Positions 4,790-11,834 of a DNA stretch of 35,355 bases are shown one piece after another. Position 1 is the stretch's first letter; every line of letters begins with the position of its first letter. Source of the stretch: Saprospiraceae bacterium (GTDB lineage: Bacteria; Bacteroidota; Bacteroidia; Chitinophagales; Saprospiraceae); assembly GCA_022448955.1 (NCBI GenBank), contig JAKVCU010000096.1, forward strand, positions 1-35,355, written 5' to 3'. Under the pieces are notes generated by a model. The model worked only from the letters and a program-made list of their open reading frames with translations, had not been told where the DNA came from and ran no database searches. A program made the position numbers and the translations under genes.

Positions 4790-6337
4790 ATGCCATTTGT
4801 TGGAAATCTAATCAAACGAGGACTTGCTTTAGGTGCAAAGCTAGAACAAAGACAAGGATCTCCTCAGCCTATTCAATATCAACATAAAACATTAAAAGGG
4901 CTTCTTAAAAAATCAGCGACAACGGCTTTTGGACAATATTATGGTTTTAAGGATATACTTAGATCAGATGATTTTGTCAAAGCTTTTCAGATGAACATTC
5001 CTATTCATGACTATAATAAAATGTACGATAAATGGTGGAATATGACGCTTAAGCGAGTAGATAACGTAAGTTGGAAAGGGAAAATTAAATATTTTGCCTT
5101 GAGCTCTGGTACTTCTGGTGCCCCTAGCAAGCATATACCAGTGACAGAGGACATGTTCAAGGCTATGCGTAGGGCAAGTTTACGTACTTTTTTTGCATTG
5201 ACTAGATTTGATATTGCACCAGATTTCTTTACAAAAGGGATGATGTTCTTGGGAGGTTCCTCAGATTTGCAACAAGGAGGAGGTTACTACATGGGGGATT
5301 TGAGCGGAATTAATGCGAGCAAAGTTCCAATGTGGCTCAGGCCATACTATAAACCAGGTGTAGAAATATCCAAAATTAATGATTGGAATAAACGTATTGA
5401 AGAAATTGCTAAACAGGCTGTGGACTGGGATATAGGTGCAATTGTTGGTATTCCAGCTTGGCTTCAACTGATGATGGAAAGGATCATTGAATATCACAAT
5501 TTAGATCATATCCATCAAATTTGGCCAAACCTACAGGTATGTGTTCATGGTGGCGTAGCCTTTGAACCATACAGAAAAGGTTTTGAAAAAATATTAGGTA
5601 AACCATTGATGTATATGGATACCTATTTGGCATCAGAGGGTTTTATCGCTTATCAGAGTCGTCCGCAAAGCAATAGTATGAAGCTATTACTAGACAATGG
5701 GATTTTCTTTGAATTTGTACCTTTTGATGAGGAAAACTTTGACAGTAGTAATCAAATTAGAGCCAATGCTAAAGTACTGACTGTGGAAGAAGTGGAAGAA
5801 AATATAGACTATGCTTTGTTAATAAGTACCTGTTCTGGTACTTGGCGATATCTGATTGGCGATACGGTGCGTTTCACGAATAAAGAAGAGATGGAAATTG
5901 TCATTACAGGGCGAACAAAACACTTCTTAAGTATCTGTGGAGAGCATTTATCTATTGAAAATATGAATGCTGGGATTAGAGCAGTGGAAGAGCAATTAGA
6001 TATCAATATTCGAGAGTTTACAGTAGCTGCTGTGGAAAATGGTAACTTCTTTGCTCATCAATGGTATATCGGTTGCGAGCCACAAGTGGATGCGACTGCC
6101 GTCAAGAAAATACTGGACGATCAATTAAAATCAATTAATGCAGACTATAGTACAGAACGTAGTGAAGTACTAGGAATGGAAGTTGAAATTTTACCTATCC
6201 ATATGTTTTATGATTGGCAAGGCCAAAGGGGAAAGATGGGAGGCCAAAATAAGTTTCCAAGAGTGATGAAACCTGAATTATTGAAAGAGTGGCAAGCGTT
6301 TGTTCATAGTTATATTCCTTCTGAAAAACATCGTTAG
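4790..6337 (+). CDS. GH3-family acyl-adenylating amidosynthetase-like protein
   Basis: This 515-residue protein has the length of the GH3 (auxin-responsive) superfamily, a branch of the ANL adenylating enzymes. The ATP-binding motif YFALSSGTSGAPSKHIP lies at ~101-117, followed by a typical middle region (VCVHGGVAFEPYRKGFEKIL, then MYMDTYLASEGFIAYQ). The late motifs YLIGDTVRF and GRTKHFLSICGEHLS close the large domain before a small C-terminal domain. Plant GH3 enzymes activate acyl acids and join them to amino acids; the substrates of the bacterial members are largely unknown. The stop codon is followed immediately by the ATG of a LysE-type exporter, so the two are almost certainly co-transcribed. 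No signal peptide is present, so it is cytosolic. Confidence 0.88.
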   Translation: MPFVGNLIKRGLALGAKLEQRQGSPQPIQYQHKTLKGLLKKSATTAFGQYYGFKDILRSDDFVKAFQMNIPIHDYNKMYDKWWNMTLKRVDNVSWKGKIKYFALSSGTSGAPSKHIPVTEDMFKAMRRASLRTFFALTRFDIAPDFFTKGMMFLGGSSDLQQGGGYYMGDLSGINASKVPMWLRPYYKPGVEISKINDWNKRIEEIAKQAVDWDIGAIVGIPAWLQLMMERIIEYHNLDHIHQIWPNLQVCVHGGVAFEPYRKGFEKILGKPLMYMDTYLASEGFIAYQSRPQSNSMKLLLDNGIFFEFVPFDEENFDSSNQIRANAKVLTVEEVEENIDYALLISTCSGTWRYLIGDTVRFTNKEEMEIVITGRTKHFLSICGEHLSIENMNAGIRAVEEQLDINIREFTVAAVENGNFFAHQWYIGCEPQVDATAVKKILDDQLKSINADYSTERSEVLGMEVEILPIHMFYDWQGQRGKMGGQNKFPRVMKPELLKEWQAFVHSYIPSEKHR

Positions 6338-7585: not shown

Positions 7586-8647
7586 ATGGGTGTTAAACAA
7601 AAGAGCAAATCGCTCAAATCAAGAGGTACTAATCTTTCGGATACGTTTTTTCAGCTGCAAGTTCTGAATGGTAAAGAGGTAGTAGATGAACAGTTTCCGA
7701 AATTCGTAGATAAGATTGGTACTGCTGCTTTGAAGCCATCAGAAATAGAAATATTCCAGCTTAACATTGGTAAACTTTGTAATCAGACTTGTGCACACTG
7801 CCACGTAGATGCAGGACCTGATCGCAAAGAGGAAAATATGGACCGTGCTACTTTAGAAGATTGTCTAGAGATCATAGCTAGCGTACCTACTATCCATACG
7901 GTAGATATTACAGGTGGTGCACCAGAGATGAATCCACATTTTAAATGGTTTGTAGAGGAGGTCACTAAATTGGGTAAGAAAGTGATGGATCGTTGTAATT
8001 TGACGATCATTATGGCCAATAAACGATATCATGCTTTGCCGGCTTTCTTTGCGCAGCATAAAGTACATGTGGTTTCTTCACTGCCTTATTTTTCAAAGAA
8101 AAGAACGGATAGCCAACGTGGTGATGGTGTTTTTGAAGATTCAATCGCGGCTTTGAAAAAGCTCAATGAGGTAGGCTATGGTAAAGAGGGGAGTGGTTTA
8201 CTTTTAGACTTGGTTTACAACCCATCTGGGGCTTTCTTGCCTGCTGATCAAGAAACATTACAAGCAGAATTTAAGCGACAGCTAAAGCGTAAGTATGATA
8301 TTGACTTTAATATGCTTTATGCTATTACCAATTTGCCTATTGCACGTTTCTTAGATTACCTTTTAGAAACAGGTAACTATGCAGAGTATATGGAAAAGCT
8401 GATAGATGCCTTTAACCCTGCAACAGTAAATGGTTTGATGTGTCGAAATACTGTTTCTGTAAGTTGGGATGGTTATATCTATGACTGTGATTTTAATCAA
8501 ATGTTGGATTTAAAAGTGGCCAATCCAATCCAGCATATTAATGATTTTGATGCCAAAGCATTAAATGATAGAAATATTGTTCTGAATCAACATTGCTATG
8601 GTTGTACTGCGGGAGCAGGATCGAGCTGTGGTGGTGAGATTGTATAA
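7586..8647 (+). CDS. arsS: Arsenosugar biosynthesis radical SAM protein ArsS
   Basis: The 353-residue protein carries the radical SAM cluster motif CNQTCAHC (Cys65, Cys69, Cys72; CX3CX2C), then DITGGAPEMNPHF, which includes the SAM-binding GGxP region. The C-terminal part corresponds to DUF3641, with CRNTVSVSWDGYIYDCDFNQ and a final Cys cluster CYGCTAGAGSSCGGE that may hold auxiliary iron-sulfur clusters. ArsS-type enzymes join a 5'-deoxyadenosyl group to methylated arsenic on the way to arsenosugars. The preceding CMD gene belongs to the same operon. No arsenite methyltransferase (arsM), which usually accompanies arsS, is present in the window. A strong terminator follows directly. Confidence 0.9.
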   Translation: MGVKQKSKSLKSRGTNLSDTFFQLQVLNGKEVVDEQFPKFVDKIGTAALKPSEIEIFQLNIGKLCNQTCAHCHVDAGPDRKEENMDRATLEDCLEIIASVPTIHTVDITGGAPEMNPHFKWFVEEVTKLGKKVMDRCNLTIIMANKRYHALPAFFAQHKVHVVSSLPYFSKKRTDSQRGDGVFEDSIAALKKLNEVGYGKEGSGLLLDLVYNPSGAFLPADQETLQAEFKRQLKRKYDIDFNMLYAITNLPIARFLDYLLETGNYAEYMEKLIDAFNPATVNGLMCRNTVSVSWDGYIYDCDFNQMLDLKVANPIQHINDFDAKALNDRNIVLNQHCYGCTAGAGSSCGGEIV

Positions 8648-8654
8648 AAATAAA

Positions 8655-8692
8655 AAGCTGTAAAGCACTTAGGCTTTACAGCTTCCTTTTTT
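8655..8692. terminator. Bidirectional terminator after arsS
   Basis: AAGCTGTAAAGC (8655-8666) pairs with GCTTTACAGCTT (8673-8684); T tracts follow on both strands (CCTTTTTT on plus, TTTTATTTTTAT on minus). It terminates arsS and would also have ended the decayed minus-strand gene next to it. Confidence 0.9.
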
Positions 8693-8983
8693 AGCGTAAG
8701 AGCCAGTATGGTTGAGCAATCGCGTCATTCCTTTTGAGCGCTCTTAAACCAAAGTTAACCTCAATCGAACGAAGTAAATTGTAGTGGTTAACACCTTCCG
8801 ATATCGTTGTTCCTGCTTCTAGGAAATCTCCAATCAATAGCGTATAAATTCCATAATCAAAGTCTCTGGTGGAAACTTTGAAGTAGGATCATCACCCAGA
8901 AAACCATGTAAAAACTTTGCGATATTGTCAACATTAGGCGTATCTGTACCTAAATCGACATCTAATGGTATCAATCCTAAGAA
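8691..8983 (-). pseudogene. Frameshifted remnant of an unrecognised gene
   Basis: Two minus-strand reading frames join into one protein-like sequence. The upstream part (8983 down to a stop at 8834-8836) reads LIPLDVDLGTDTPNV ... AKFLHGFLGDDP. Near 8880 the sense passes to another frame, reading FKVSTRDFDYGIYTLL ... GDFLEAGTTISEGVNHYN ... AIAQPYWLLR, with a stop at 8691-8693. The change needs a single-base indel in the GATGATCC region. There is no start, and a stop codon (8984-8986) lies immediately upstream, so only the C-terminal ~95 residues of a former protein remain. I do not recognise the family. A sequencing error is possible but would not explain the missing N-terminus. Confidence 0.55.
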
Positions 8984-9016
8984 CTATTGATCAGAATGGA
9001 ACTTTTTCCATTCTGA

Positions 9017-9112
9017 ATAGCATTCTGCAAAAATGAAGCAGCAAAAGATTTTGCAGAAGTTTATCATCGCCATATTGGTATGATGCGAGTTTTGGAGAAA
9101 GCTGGTTTCTGA
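9017..9112 (+). pseudogene. Short C-terminal coding relic, possibly acetyltransferase-like
   Basis: About 31 codons read AKDFAEVYHRHIGMMRVLEK then AGF and a stop. The ending RVLEKAGF resembles the common end of a motif in GNAT acetyltransferases, but this is too short to assign. An in-frame stop lies just upstream (9014-9016). It is either a remnant or chance. Confidence 0.25.
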
Positions 9113-9188
9113 AAGGGAGTAGTCCTAAAAAGATAAGCTTTTAAGAACGACTGCATAGCTGACGTGCACCGCTGATTCGCATTAAAAA

Positions 9189-9611
9189 CTAGCGGAAATA
9201 TACAGTAATAGCGTCCATGAAAGACTGCTTTCTTCCTGAAGATACGCTGATATTCATTCCGCCTTCTAGGATGACGTAGCCTCCTTTTCCTTTGATGTAC
9301 TTTTGTAAATAGTCAAGATTCACGGTGTGTGAGCGGTGAATTCTTGCGAATCTCCGGTCGTTATACAACATATCTTCCATGTCCCTTAAGGTCCTGCAAA
9401 CGAGTTGTTTTCTTCCACCTTTGAAGTGGATAAGGGTATAATTACCTTTTGCCTCTAGGCAAATGATTTCTTTAATCCTTTCAAAGGATAATCCTTCCAT
9501 GGTTGGTAAAGCAATTTTTCTATTGGGATTATAGGTTCTGATCGATCCTATTTCTTGATTCTTTAGATTGGGGAGTTTACTTTTCTCTACTGGAATGCTT
9601 AATACTTTCAT
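9189..9611 (-). CDS. Stand-alone LytTR-family DNA-binding regulator
   Basis: The 140-residue protein has a LytTR domain over about residues 35-138: IKEIICLEAKGNYTLIHF, a central RFARIHRSHTVNLDYLQKYI segment (the conserved R-x-H-R-S and N-L), and a last strand GMNISVSSGRKQ. The usual N-terminal receiver domain is missing; only ~35 residues of basic, low-complexity sequence precede the domain. So its activity is not set by phosphorelay in the usual way, unless a partner protein supplies it. It is divergent from the helical-repeat gene (ATG at 9878), and a 12-bp palindrome lies between them. LytTR regulators often control peptide, bacteriocin or surface-structure genes, which makes the double-glycine peptide gene nearby notable. 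Confidence 0.9.
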   Translation of the reverse strand: MKVLSIPVEKSKLPNLKNQEIGSIRTYNPNRKIALPTMEGLSFERIKEIICLEAKGNYTLIHFKGGRKQLVCRTLRDMEDMLYNDRRFARIHRSHTVNLDYLQKYIKGKGGYVILEGGMNISVSSGRKQSFMDAITVYFR

Positions 9612-9644
9612 AGTCTATATAATTAGGTTGTTACTTTGAAATAA

Positions 9645-9656
9645 TAGATTAATCTA
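9645..9656. promoter_or_regulatory. 12-bp palindrome between divergent genes (candidate operator)
   Basis: TAGATTAATCTA is a perfect palindrome 34 bases upstream of the LytTR gene start and upstream of the helical-repeat gene's promoter. CCTATTA occurs twice nearby (9661-9667 and 9706-9712). LytTR proteins usually bind direct repeats, so which element matters is open. Confidence 0.3.
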
Positions 9657-9736
9657 ATAACCTATTAAGACCATAATATTAGAGGCTTTTCGAAGTATGA
9701 ACAATCCTATTAGTCAGAATATGTCAGGTTTCTGAT

Positions 9737-9744
9737 TACCTTTG
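9737..9744 (+). promoter_or_regulatory. Probable -7 promoter box of the helical-repeat gene
   Basis: TACCTTTG fits TAnnTTTG exactly. It predicts transcription from about 9751, that is after the first in-frame ATG at 9749, and so supports the downstream start at 9878. No clear -33 element. Confidence 0.45.
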
Positions 9745-9877
9745 TGTAATGAGATGTAAGGGATATATAGTTGAGATTTTTCCGTTTTTATTAGAAATTA
9801 AGGTGCAAATGGAAGCTATGAAAATATCTCATCGATGGTTCCTTCCTTTATTAATGAATATTCAAAGAAGTAAAAAT

Positions 9878-11449
9878 ATGCCCAAGACGCCTTCAATAAA
9901 GTTATTTCATTTAATCAAATCTTTGACGGGTTCGGAGAAAAGATACTTTAAGCTTTTTGTAAAGGATACAGGAGGAAAGACGAGTAAGTACATACAATTA
10001 TTCGAAGCTATTGAGAAGCAAGAAACGTTTGATGATGAAGCTTTAAGAGCTTTGGTTTATCCTTTAGAAAATATACAAAGCCGCAAGTATTCTGAATTAA
10101 AAGCATACTTATATGAGCTCATTTTGAAAAGCCTTCAGTCTTATGATGAAAAAACATCTATCGATTACAAATTACAGCATATATTAAGTAGTATAAAGGT
10201 TTTGTTTAAGCGAGCCTTGTTTGAAGATTGTAAGGAACTACTTACCAAGGGTACTAAGCTAGCAAAAAAATATGAGCAGTTTAATGCCTTATTAAAAATA
10301 ATGGATTGGGAAAAGCAGATCGCTTATGCGGAAACGGATATTCAATATTTAGATAAATATCTAAGCAAGATTCAAGCGCAAGAGACACAAGCATTAAGTC
10401 AGATTGAGAATAGGGCTATTTATGAAAATATATTTTATCAGTTATTAATAGGCTTGCGAAAAGACTCATCCCTGCGTCGCCCGGAGCAGCGTGATCGACT
10501 GCTAAAGCTTTTAGATCATCCACAGCTTAATGGGGTGGATCAAGCACTTTCCCATCAGGCAAAGGTGCTTTATTATCGTATCTATACCTTCTATTATTAT
10601 ACGATAGGTGATTTTGATTCTTTTTATAAGACTGGGGTATTGTTGCTAGATATCATGGAGGCTGCGCCACATTTCTTAAAAGAAAGCGTGACGAATTATA
10701 TTTCTGCACTGAGTAATTTATTGGTAGGGTGTATCCTTTCGTTTGACTATGATCAGGCAGAGGTATATTTGAAGAAACTTAAGGCGATTAAGCCTATTTC
10801 AGCAGATGATAAATTAAAAATTCATAGACAATATTATACAGTAAAGTTTCGACTTTGTATTAATACTGGAGCTTTTGAAGAAGGACTTAAGGCGCTAGAA
10901 GAGCACTTGACTTTGTTGGCTAGTGGTAATGTCAATAGTAAGATATTCGAAACGGAAAGTTTCTACTTCCAATATATCTGTATTTATTTTGGAACAGGTG
11001 TTTATGATAAGGCGCTAGACTATTTGAATCGATGGTTAAATTCTCCAAAGAGTATTGAGCGGCAGGATTTACAAAGTTTTGCGCGGATGATTAATCTAAT
11101 CATTCACTATGAGATGGGGAATCACTTACTCTTGGATTCACTACTTAGATCTACCTACCGATTTTTGAATAATCGTAATTCATTATATCAGATGGAGGCA
11201 AGGATGATTACTTTTATTAGAGATGTTAATCATGCACAAGATCGAAAAACAAGGGAAACTGTACTCTATGGTTTTAAAAGGGAACTTATCAACCAAATGG
11301 AAGATAAAAAAGTAAAAGCCATGCTTCAACTATTTGATCTTGAGGCATGGCTTGACAGCAAAATCCTAAATATGTCCTTTGCTGAAGTAGTCGAGCGGAA
11401 GTTCTTACAAGAGAAGCAAAAGGTGAAATTCACCAATGACACAAATTGA
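9878..11449 (+). CDS. TPR-like helical-repeat protein of unknown function
   Basis: I chose the ATG at 9878 (MPKTPSIKLFHLIKSLTGSE), giving 523 residues; the frame is open back to 9749, but that stretch looks non-coding and overlaps the promoter. The protein is soluble, without signal peptide or membrane segment. It is almost entirely alpha-helical, with many ~35-40-residue helix pairs rich in Leu, Tyr and Lys, as in degenerate TPR or SEL1-like solenoids (for example YEQFNALLKIMDWEKQIAYA and YDKALDYLNRWLN). The N-terminal block SLTGSEKRYFKLFVKD is striking and may define a Bacteroidota-specific family. No catalytic motif is visible. It is divergent from a LytTR regulator and converges on a double-glycine peptide gene six bases away. 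A peptide-sensing or scaffold role is possible but unsupported by direct evidence. Confidence 0.8.
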   Translation: MPKTPSIKLFHLIKSLTGSEKRYFKLFVKDTGGKTSKYIQLFEAIEKQETFDDEALRALVYPLENIQSRKYSELKAYLYELILKSLQSYDEKTSIDYKLQHILSSIKVLFKRALFEDCKELLTKGTKLAKKYEQFNALLKIMDWEKQIAYAETDIQYLDKYLSKIQAQETQALSQIENRAIYENIFYQLLIGLRKDSSLRRPEQRDRLLKLLDHPQLNGVDQALSHQAKVLYYRIYTFYYYTIGDFDSFYKTGVLLLDIMEAAPHFLKESVTNYISALSNLLVGCILSFDYDQAEVYLKKLKAIKPISADDKLKIHRQYYTVKFRLCINTGAFEEGLKALEEHLTLLASGNVNSKIFETESFYFQYICIYFGTGVYDKALDYLNRWLNSPKSIERQDLQSFARMINLIIHYEMGNHLLLDSLLRSTYRFLNNRNSLYQMEARMITFIRDVNHAQDRKTRETVLYGFKRELINQMEDKKVKAMLQLFDLEAWLDSKILNMSFAEVVERKFLQEKQKVKFTNDTN

Positions 11450-11455
11450 AATGGC

Positions 11456-11659
11456 CTACACACGCTTTGGCGTAAATGAAAAGCGACTACTTTGTTTGGG
11501 CGAAGTTAATCTTAAATCAATATCCGTCCAATTGCCCGCTTTAAGCTCTTTTCCAGGTAGTGTAATAATGGATAAACCACCTTTGATGTTTTTTAATTGA
11601 TCGTCAGTGAGTGGTTTTAGGTGTTGTATCGCTTTGGGTGTATTCTTATGATCATTCAT
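11456..11659 (-). CDS. Double-glycine leader peptide (bacteriocin-like or natural-product precursor)
   Basis: A 67-residue peptide. Residues 1-28 end in LTDDQLKNIKGG, which fits the double-glycine leader consensus (LSxxELxxIxGG) recognised by peptidase-containing ABC transporters. Cleavage after Gly28 would release a 39-residue basic core beginning LSIITLPGKE and ending RFSFTPKRV. The core has no Cys, so lanthionine or disulfide chemistry is excluded; it is rich in Ser, Thr, Lys and Arg. No C39 peptidase transporter, modification enzyme or immunity gene is visible in the window, so the exporter must be elsewhere if the peptide is secreted. It converges on the helical-repeat gene (6 bases apart), with LytTR further upstream. 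Short length lowers confidence, but the leader match is strong. Confidence 0.7.
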   Translation of the reverse strand: MNDHKNTPKAIQHLKPLTDDQLKNIKGGLSIITLPGKELKAGNWTDIDLRLTSPKQSSRFSFTPKRV

Positions 11660-11834
11660 AACTGAGAATTTTGAGTTTTAAAATGAGATATAGTCTTAAA
11701 TTTAGCAATTTGTTTGAAGAGAGGTTTTACAAAAAAAATACTAAAGTCAGTTTTCTGATAAATAACTTGGAGGGCATTAAAGTTTGAAAATTGTAATTTA
11801 CACTTCTTTTTTTGCTTCTACAATCTTGGAATAG

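What the first reader, a model, noticed from the sequence alone, without database searches (positions are those of the whole stretch)
9189..11659. Possible peptide-secretion or signalling locus: LytTR regulator, helical-repeat protein, double-glycine peptide
Seen: a LytTR regulator without receiver domain, a divergent soluble helical-repeat protein, and a 67-residue peptide with a canonical double-glycine leader, packed within 2.5 kb and flanked on one side by decayed genes. Known: in Firmicutes, LytTR regulators control double-glycine peptide pheromones and bacteriocins, and TPR-type proteins can bind signalling peptides. Inference: the three may form one regulatory unit in a phylum where such systems are little described. 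The lack of an exporter gene nearby is a weakness.
Basis: partly seen in the sequence, partly recalled or inferred. Interest (0 to 1): 0.62.

Follow-up and report, generated by a model that had tools for sequence, protein, structure and literature searches.

The report
Peptide-linked gene switch in Saprospiraceae bacteria
A gene for a small export-type peptide sits tail to tail with a gene for a protein shaped like known peptide receptors across one family of bacteria, and the same DNA switch lies in front of both genes and of an outer-membrane importer, which suggests an undescribed way for these bacteria to sense a peptide, perhaps from each other.

Summary
The window lies in a Saprospiraceae genome.

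Helical protein (true start 9878) and double-glycine (GG) peptide form a conserved convergent pair. Of 71 named orthologue loci, 65 carry the peptide directly at the gene's 3' end, 3 after a tandem second copy, and 3 are cut by contig ends; 0 of 9 non-orthologous family members have it. The peptide is under purifying selection.

A conserved operator (AAAAGTCAGGTTTCTGA) precedes the helical/LytTR genes and the peptide. It also precedes a TonB-dependent receptor gene elsewhere: 16 of 18 genomes with the helical orthologue, 0 of 12 without. A -7-like element sits at a fixed distance from it at the LytTR, peptide and receptor promoters.

Stand-alone LytTR was seen in only 22 of 38 genomes with the pair; 8 of the other 16 keep the exact operator. 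C39 exporters occur in 38 of 38. The modelled helical protein aligns best with Rap/NprR pheromone receptors.

Best reading: a peptide-responsive circuit working like Firmicute RRNPP quorum sensing, but GG-exported. Peptide binding and operator binding are inferred.

The parts
9878..11449 (+). Helical-repeat (TPR-like) protein, 523 aa; predicted intracellular receptor/regulator
   Evidence: Start set by orthologues; BT_2802_fam 186.9 bits below cut-off; AF2 model pLDDT 87.8, all helical; best VIA-align rows are Rap/NprR, Z 18.7-17.6
11456..11659 (-). GG-leader peptide precursor, 67 aa, convergent with the helical gene (stop codons 6 bp apart)
   Evidence: Conserved in 65 of 71 orthologue loci; pN/pS 0.11-0.35 in the 7 closest pairs; leader matches TIGR01847
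9189..9611 (-). Stand-alone LytTR DNA-binding protein, divergent from the helical gene
   Evidence: PF04397 E 6.8e-14; adjacent in 22 of 38 genomes with the helical orthologue
9718..9741 (+). Operator 1 (core GTCAGGTTTCTGA, 9723-9735) between LytTR and helical gene
   Evidence: PWM score 29.3; exact search of the genome; present above threshold in 61 of 70 assessable orthologue loci, 22 training sites included
11741..11764 (+). Operator 2 (core GTCAGTTTTCTGA, 11746-11758) upstream of the peptide, reverse to the peptide gene
   Evidence: PWM score 26.4; above threshold in 51 of 63 assessable loci against 0 of 315 shuffled regions
9673..9681 (-). -7-like element (TAATATTAT on - strand) of the LytTR promoter
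   Evidence: TAnn(n)TT at fixed spacing from the operator in 28 of 36 loci with LytTR, 1 of 26 without; window position read
9737..9744 (+). TAnnTTTG (TACCTTTG), possible -7 element of the helical gene, just right of operator 1
   Evidence: Read from the sequence and in the same-genus relative; not conserved across all loci
11696..11705 (-). -7-like element (CTAAATTTAA on - strand) of the peptide promoter
   Evidence: TAnn(n)TT at fixed spacing in 50 of 53 peptide promoters with an operator, control offset 7 of 53; window position read

Best explanation
The locus is the core of a peptide-responsive gene circuit. Inferred sequence of events: the GG precursor is cleaved after KGG and exported by one of the genome's C39-peptidase ABC transporters; the mature core accumulates outside, re-enters (the operator-controlled TonB-dependent receptor is the candidate outer-membrane importer), and binds the TPR-like C-terminal part of the helical protein, which changes the activity of that protein, or of a DNA-binding partner such as LytTR, at the shared operator. 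The operator sits upstream of a fixed -33/-7 promoter at the peptide, LytTR and receptor genes (activator-like position) and directly in front of the helical gene (autoregulation). Shown by sequence: the conserved gene pair, purifying selection on the peptide, the operator, its placement at three kinds of promoter, its restriction to genomes with the helical gene, and C39 exporters in all those genomes. Suggested only: the Rap/NprR-like fold and covariation of peptide core with the receptor's C-terminal part. Inferred without direct test: export, re-import, binding of peptide, binding of operator, sign of regulation, density dependence.
For: Pair: 65 of 71 orthologue loci direct, 3 after a tandem second copy, 3 cut by contig ends, 0 of 9 non-orthologues. 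In 120 genomes of the family the peptide profile hits at E<1e-6 in 36 of 38 genomes with the orthologue and 0 of 82 without; of 9 such genomes not used to build the profile, 7 hit. Purifying selection. C39: 38 of 38 against 37 of 82, in both size classes. Operator: peptide side 51 of 63, shuffles 0 of 315; exact 14-mer in 20 of 38 genomes with the orthologue against 3 of 82 without; TonB receptor 16 of 18 against 0 of 12; fixed -7 spacing. Fold: VIA-align ranks 1-8 are Rap or NprR. Covariation of peptide core with receptor residues 113-523 beyond residues 1-112, partial 0.29, permutation p 0.002, and beyond RecX, partial 0.42.
Against: No biochemistry. TPR folds are common and LGN rows follow at Z 17.4, near tied; Foldseek alone gives no match below E 1e-3. 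The N-terminal 112 residues match no known DNA-binding fold convincingly (best Z 5.3). The leader covaries with the receptor almost as much as the core (partial 0.25). The C39 exporter genes of this genome carry no operator. 12 of 63 peptide regions and 9 of 70 helical-gene regions are below threshold. Two genomes break the pattern: G010 has the helical gene without a peptide hit, and in G012 the peptide lies on another contig. The comparisons ignore relatedness of the genomes.
Confidence: 0.45

Rival explanations
1. LytTR is the operator-binding regulator (as ComE/BlpR-type LytTR proteins control GG peptides in Firmicutes); the helical protein only modulates it, and where stand-alone LytTR is absent a full-length LytTR response regulator does the job.
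For: LytTR sits beside the operator with a conserved promoter toward it (28 of 36). Many full-length LytTR frames exist in these genomes. The core TCAGTTTTC loosely resembles published LytTR half-sites (recalled).
Against: The exact operator occurs in 8 of 16 genomes where no stand-alone LytTR was seen, against 12 of 22 with it; at the helical gene it passes threshold in 26 of 32 loci without adjacent LytTR and 35 of 38 with it. It is one half-palindromic site, not two direct repeats.
Confidence: 0.25
2. The peptide is an antimicrobial or modified peptide (RiPP) and the helical protein regulates or neutralises it; the TonB receptor is a target or uptake system for a competitor's product, not part of signalling.
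For: 9 of 29 precursors match the pinensin leader model and 6 of 29 TIGR04149; GG peptides of Bacteroidota are often RiPPs (recalled).
Against: No modification gene is conserved beside the pair among the genes I tested (LytTR, RecX, MscS, ArsS), and only 3 of 65 cores hold a cysteine. The peptide is a single-copy, vertically conserved partner of one regulator-like protein, under purifying selection.
Confidence: 0.2
3. Peptide and helical gene are co-conserved neighbours without a direct link, both controlled by an unrelated regulator of cell-surface genes that happens to occur in the same clade.
For: The operator also precedes genes for GWxTD and T9SS-secreted proteins; phylogeny was not controlled.
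Against: Tight convergent linkage survives across many genera while RecX, MscS and LytTR neighbours come and go; the operator is nearly absent where the helical gene is absent although the TonB receptor gene remains.
Confidence: 0.2

Closest known systems
RRNPP peptide quorum-sensing systems (Rap-Phr, NprR-NprX, PlcR-PapR, Rgg-SHP; Firmicutes)
   Same: Adjacent genes for a small propeptide and a TPR-type intracellular receptor; the model's best structural rows are Rap and NprR
   Different: Precursor has a GG leader, not a Sec signal or SHP type; receptor is 523 aa with no recognisable HTH; Bacteroidota; operator also precedes a TonB-dependent receptor
BT_2802 family / RusR of Bacteroides thetaiotaomicron (ribose PUL regulator; RusR = BT2802 is recalled)
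   Same: Full-length sequence relationship, 186.9 bits; RusR is treated as regulator of the Rus PUL BT2803-2809 (PMC12596196, passages)
   Different: Score below the family cut-off; 0 of 9 non-orthologous relatives have the peptide
LytTR-controlled GG-peptide pheromone systems (ComCDE, Blp; Firmicutes; recalled)
   Same: LytTR gene plus GG-leader peptide
   Different: LytTR lacks a receiver, no histidine kinase was found beside it, and LytTR is absent from many loci that keep peptide and operator

Membership tests
RRNPP quorum sensing (criteria from PMC10075063, passages) | Propeptide of 10-100 aa | tested here: met
   67 aa here; aligned relatives about 62-85 aa
RRNPP quorum sensing (criteria from PMC10075063, passages) | Propeptide exported by Sec (PptAB for Rgg/PrgX peptides) | tested here: not met
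   N-terminus is a GG leader matching TIGR01847/pinensin/TIGR04149 models; SignalP was not available
RRNPP quorum sensing (criteria from PMC10075063, passages) | Receptor of 250-500 aa | tested here: not met
   523 aa; orthologues 506-519 aa apart from this one
RRNPP quorum sensing (criteria from PMC10075063, passages) | Receptor carries TPRs | tested here: inconclusive
   No Pfam family for this protein; TPR_14 in 14 and TPR_2 in 13 of 70 members; fold rows Rap/NprR then LGN
RRNPP quorum sensing (criteria from PMC10075063, passages) | Receptor and propeptide genes directly adjacent | tested here: met
   65 of 71 direct, 3 after a second receptor copy
RRNPP quorum sensing (criteria from PMC10075063, passages) | Mature peptide binds the receptor | not testable with these tools
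   Covariation only
BT_2802 family (NCBIfam NF058569) | Score above the curated cut-off (550 bits) | tested here: not met
   186.9 bits over the full profile: a distant relative
Pinensin-type class I lanthipeptide | Leader matches the family model | tested here: inconclusive
   9 of 29 precursors at E<=0.1, not the one in the window
Pinensin-type class I lanthipeptide | Lanthionine-forming enzymes in the cluster | not tested
   No search for LanB/LanC was made; none stood out among the window ORFs that I scanned
Double-glycine peptide exported by a C39 PCAT | C39-peptidase ABC transporter in the genome | tested here: met
   Two in this genome, one with an HlyD gene beside it; 38 of 38 genomes with the pair

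The most novel reading that the evidence does not exclude
A peptide quorum-sensing system of RRNPP-like logic in Bacteroidota: a GG-leader pheromone exported by an unlinked C39 transporter, re-imported through a dedicated, operator-controlled TonB-dependent receptor, and read by a Rap/NprR-shaped regulator with an N-terminal DNA-binding domain of a new kind that controls its own gene, the pheromone gene and a set of surface and T9SS-secreted proteins.
Probability: 0.3. Interest if true: 0.92.

Novelty: new variant of a known kind. Interest (0 to 1): 0.8.

Why it matters
Bacteroidota are little known for dedicated peptide signalling. If right, this is a complete candidate circuit (signal, exporter class, importer, receptor, operator, targets) in a family common in activated sludge and the sea, conserved in cultured strains, and it gives a possible function to the BT_2802/RusR-like helical proteins, which occur in 100 of 120 genomes of the family. 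It also shows that GG peptides annotated as bacteriocins or pinensins may be signals.

Tried and rejected
Rejected or left open: (1) LytTR as sole operator binder, see rivals. (2) The helical ORF start at 9749: orthologues start at 9878. (3) The third exact GTCAGNTTTCTGA in this genome (G000:C204) lies inside a coding frame, so it is taken as chance. (4) A known DNA-binding fold for residues 1-112: only weak rows, Z at most 5.3, among them ToxR/TcpP winged helix (Z 4.8) and sigma-28; absence of a match proves nothing. (5) Sequence search of solved structures: kinesin light chain TPRs only, nothing for the N-terminus. (6) A second helical family (query from L016): a GG peptide was found by a regular expression in 2 of 30 loci (L272, which is the query locus, and L282), so not a general rule. 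(7) An operator at the C39 exporter genes of this genome: none above threshold. (8) Literature: ten searches. I read passages of PMC12596196 and PMC10075063 and only listings of the rest; none of the listings I saw describes this system, but the library lacks most subscription papers, and the original RusR paper is not held. The name RusR for BT2802 is recalled.

Limits of the counts: the G-handle genomes and the named GTDB loci overlap (L089 and G001:C87 are contigs of the same length with the same genes), so the two sets are not independent. The cut of E<1e-80 for 'orthologue' is mine, in the gap between 5.2e-81 and 1.8e-68. The PWM was trained on 22 sites upstream of the helical gene, so that count is partly circular; the peptide and TonB counts are not training data, but the TonB gene was chosen because exact motif hits pointed to it: among 7 of its 18 genomes where no earlier hit pointed there, 6 are positive. 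Only the 30 best-scoring of 112 genome matches of the TonB gene were examined; one of the two negatives, G125, has a site (26.3) further upstream. An earlier, cruder version (22 of 30 loci parsed) gave 12 of 14 against 1 of 8. For 3 of the 16 genomes without adjacent LytTR (G043, G076, G112) the best LytTR row is not in the capped list. Rows dropped: 6 of 75 usable loci were left out of the structure alignment, and L093, L126, L155, L156 and L160 for stops or truncation.

Full report
1. What is there. The window belongs to a genome (G000, 6.4 Mb) whose closest held relatives, and the named orthologues of this locus, are Saprospiraceae, Bacteroidota. The three genes exist as described, except that the helical protein starts at 9878 rather than 9749. 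Helical gene and peptide gene are convergent with 6 bp between their stop codons.

2. The pair is conserved. A protein search of 120 genomes of the family found BT_2802-type helical proteins in 100; 38 carry a close orthologue of the window protein (E<1e-80). At the 3' end of the gene, 29 of 30 fetched orthologue loci have a convergent small ORF with a KGG-type leader; the thirtieth, L036, has a second receptor copy there, and the peptide follows that copy. A profile of these 29 peptides hits at E<1e-6 in 36 of the 38 genomes, beside the gene in 35 and on another contig in one (G012), and in 0 of 82 genomes without the orthologue; G123 has a weak hit (E 0.004) beside it and G010 none. In a separate named set of 80 loci, 71 are orthologues: 65 with the peptide directly downstream, 3 (L111, L116, L147) after a tandem second receptor, 3 cut by contig ends; the 9 non-orthologues have none. 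The frame is under purifying selection: pN/pS 0.11-0.35 in the 7 closest pairs, and changes at the three codon positions over all 94 compared pairs are 1869, 1452 and 3380. Leaders end in KGG in 59 of 65, and 55 of 65 cores hold [DE][IVLT]R, usually after a W.

3. LytTR is a frequent but not obligatory third member. A stand-alone LytTR lies divergently beside the helical gene in 22 of 38 genomes. In 13 of the other 16 genomes the best LytTR hit shown is a 246-318 aa frame, that is, a full response regulator size; for three the row is not shown; in one (G111) the side is cut off. RecX and MscS genes are common but not constant downstream neighbours.

4. A shared operator. Comparison with the same-genus locus showed a conserved TCAG-N4-CTGA between LytTR and helical gene, and the same motif upstream of the peptide. 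A matrix built from 22 sites upstream of the helical gene, with a threshold of 15.4 (the maximum of 800 control windows), passes in 61 of 70 assessable regions upstream of the helical gene and 51 of 63 upstream of the peptide; shuffled peptide regions pass in 0 of 315 and the opposite orientation in 4 of 63. Background in unrelated loci is 5 hits in 579 kb, both strands. In motif-plus peptide promoters a TAnn(n)TT element stands at the same distance in 50 of 53; toward LytTR in 28 of 36; at the TonB gene in 16 of 16; where LytTR is absent only 1 of 26 has it on that side, although the operator stays (control offset 7, 0, 1 and 3). So the operator looks like an activator site upstream of a Bacteroidota-type promoter at peptide, LytTR and TonB gene, and it is kept in front of the helical gene in its own right.

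5. A small regulon. The exact 14-mer AGTCAGGTTTCTGA occurs 33 times in 20 of 38 genomes with the orthologue, and 3 times, in 3 of 82, without; those three lie inside coding frames. Many other sites precede genes of exported proteins: a TonB-dependent receptor (CarboxypepD_reg + Plug) in 9 genomes by exact sites (G001, G002, G021, G043, G045, G066, G077, G087, G113), small CarboxypepD_reg-like proteins in 3, and a GWxTD-type protein in 3, one of them by a one-mismatch site. The TonB gene itself is present in 112 of 120 genomes, which gives a natural control: the operator is upstream in 16 of 18 genomes with the helical orthologue and 0 of 12 without (Fisher 1e-6, relatedness not corrected). In the window's own genome it scores 21.9 there, and 25.9 and 21.5 upstream of two homologous proteins with T9SS sorting domains.

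6. The helical protein. The AF2 model is confident (pLDDT 87.8). VIA-align ranks Rap and NprR structures 1-8 (Z 18.7-17.6, about 300 residues, rmsd 4.7-5.7), then LGN (17.4); Foldseek alone is weak. Residues 1-112 are the more conserved part (mean entropy 1.27 against 1.78), with net charge about +6 in residues 1-40, but their own model matches nothing well. NCBIfam relates the protein to BT_2802; in B. thetaiotaomicron RusR regulates the ribose locus BT2803-2809 (PMC12596196, passages; that RusR is BT2802 is recalled). Peptide-core distances follow receptor residues 113-523 (0.33) more than residues 1-112 (0.17); partial 0.29, p 0.002; with RecX as control (26 loci) partial 0.42; the leader does nearly as well (0.25).

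7. Export. C39-peptidase domains occur in 38 of 38 genomes with the pair and 37 of 82 without; for genomes of 5 Mb and more 31 of 31 against 17 of 28, below that 7 of 7 against 20 of 54. In this genome one is beside an HlyD-type gene and one stands alone; neither carries the operator.

8. Mechanism and comparison. The best reading is a peptide-responsive circuit. It works like RRNPP, but is not filed as a member: the Sec criterion and the length limit are not met, and peptide binding is untested. Who binds the operator is open; the helical protein is favoured because the operator follows it rather than LytTR.

Noticed in passing
L272 (G001:C307) 1271-1510 and L282 (G015:C101) 2652-2876: A second family of helical proteins (no NCBIfam or Pfam match) has, in these two of 30 loci, a convergent GG peptide with a very acidic core.
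   Followed up: partly
L111, L116, L147: Tandem second copies of the helical gene, the peptide following the second copy; receptor duplication beside a single signal gene.
   Followed up: partly
window 8650-9190: Only short ORFs on the minus strand between the ArsS gene and LytTR; possibly remains of a larger gene.
   Followed up: no
window 7586-8647: Arsenosugar radical SAM protein ArsS (TIGR04167, 445.5 bits, cut-off 300); not linked to the peptide.
   Followed up: no
L332 (G001:C162) 4985-5701: A predicted exported protein without family match lies directly downstream of the operator-controlled TonB-dependent receptor and may share its transcript.
   Followed up: no
L333 (G000:C166) 686-1378: A small lipoprotein-like gene lies divergent from the TonB receptor, with relatives at several of the operator sites; no family match.
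   Followed up: no
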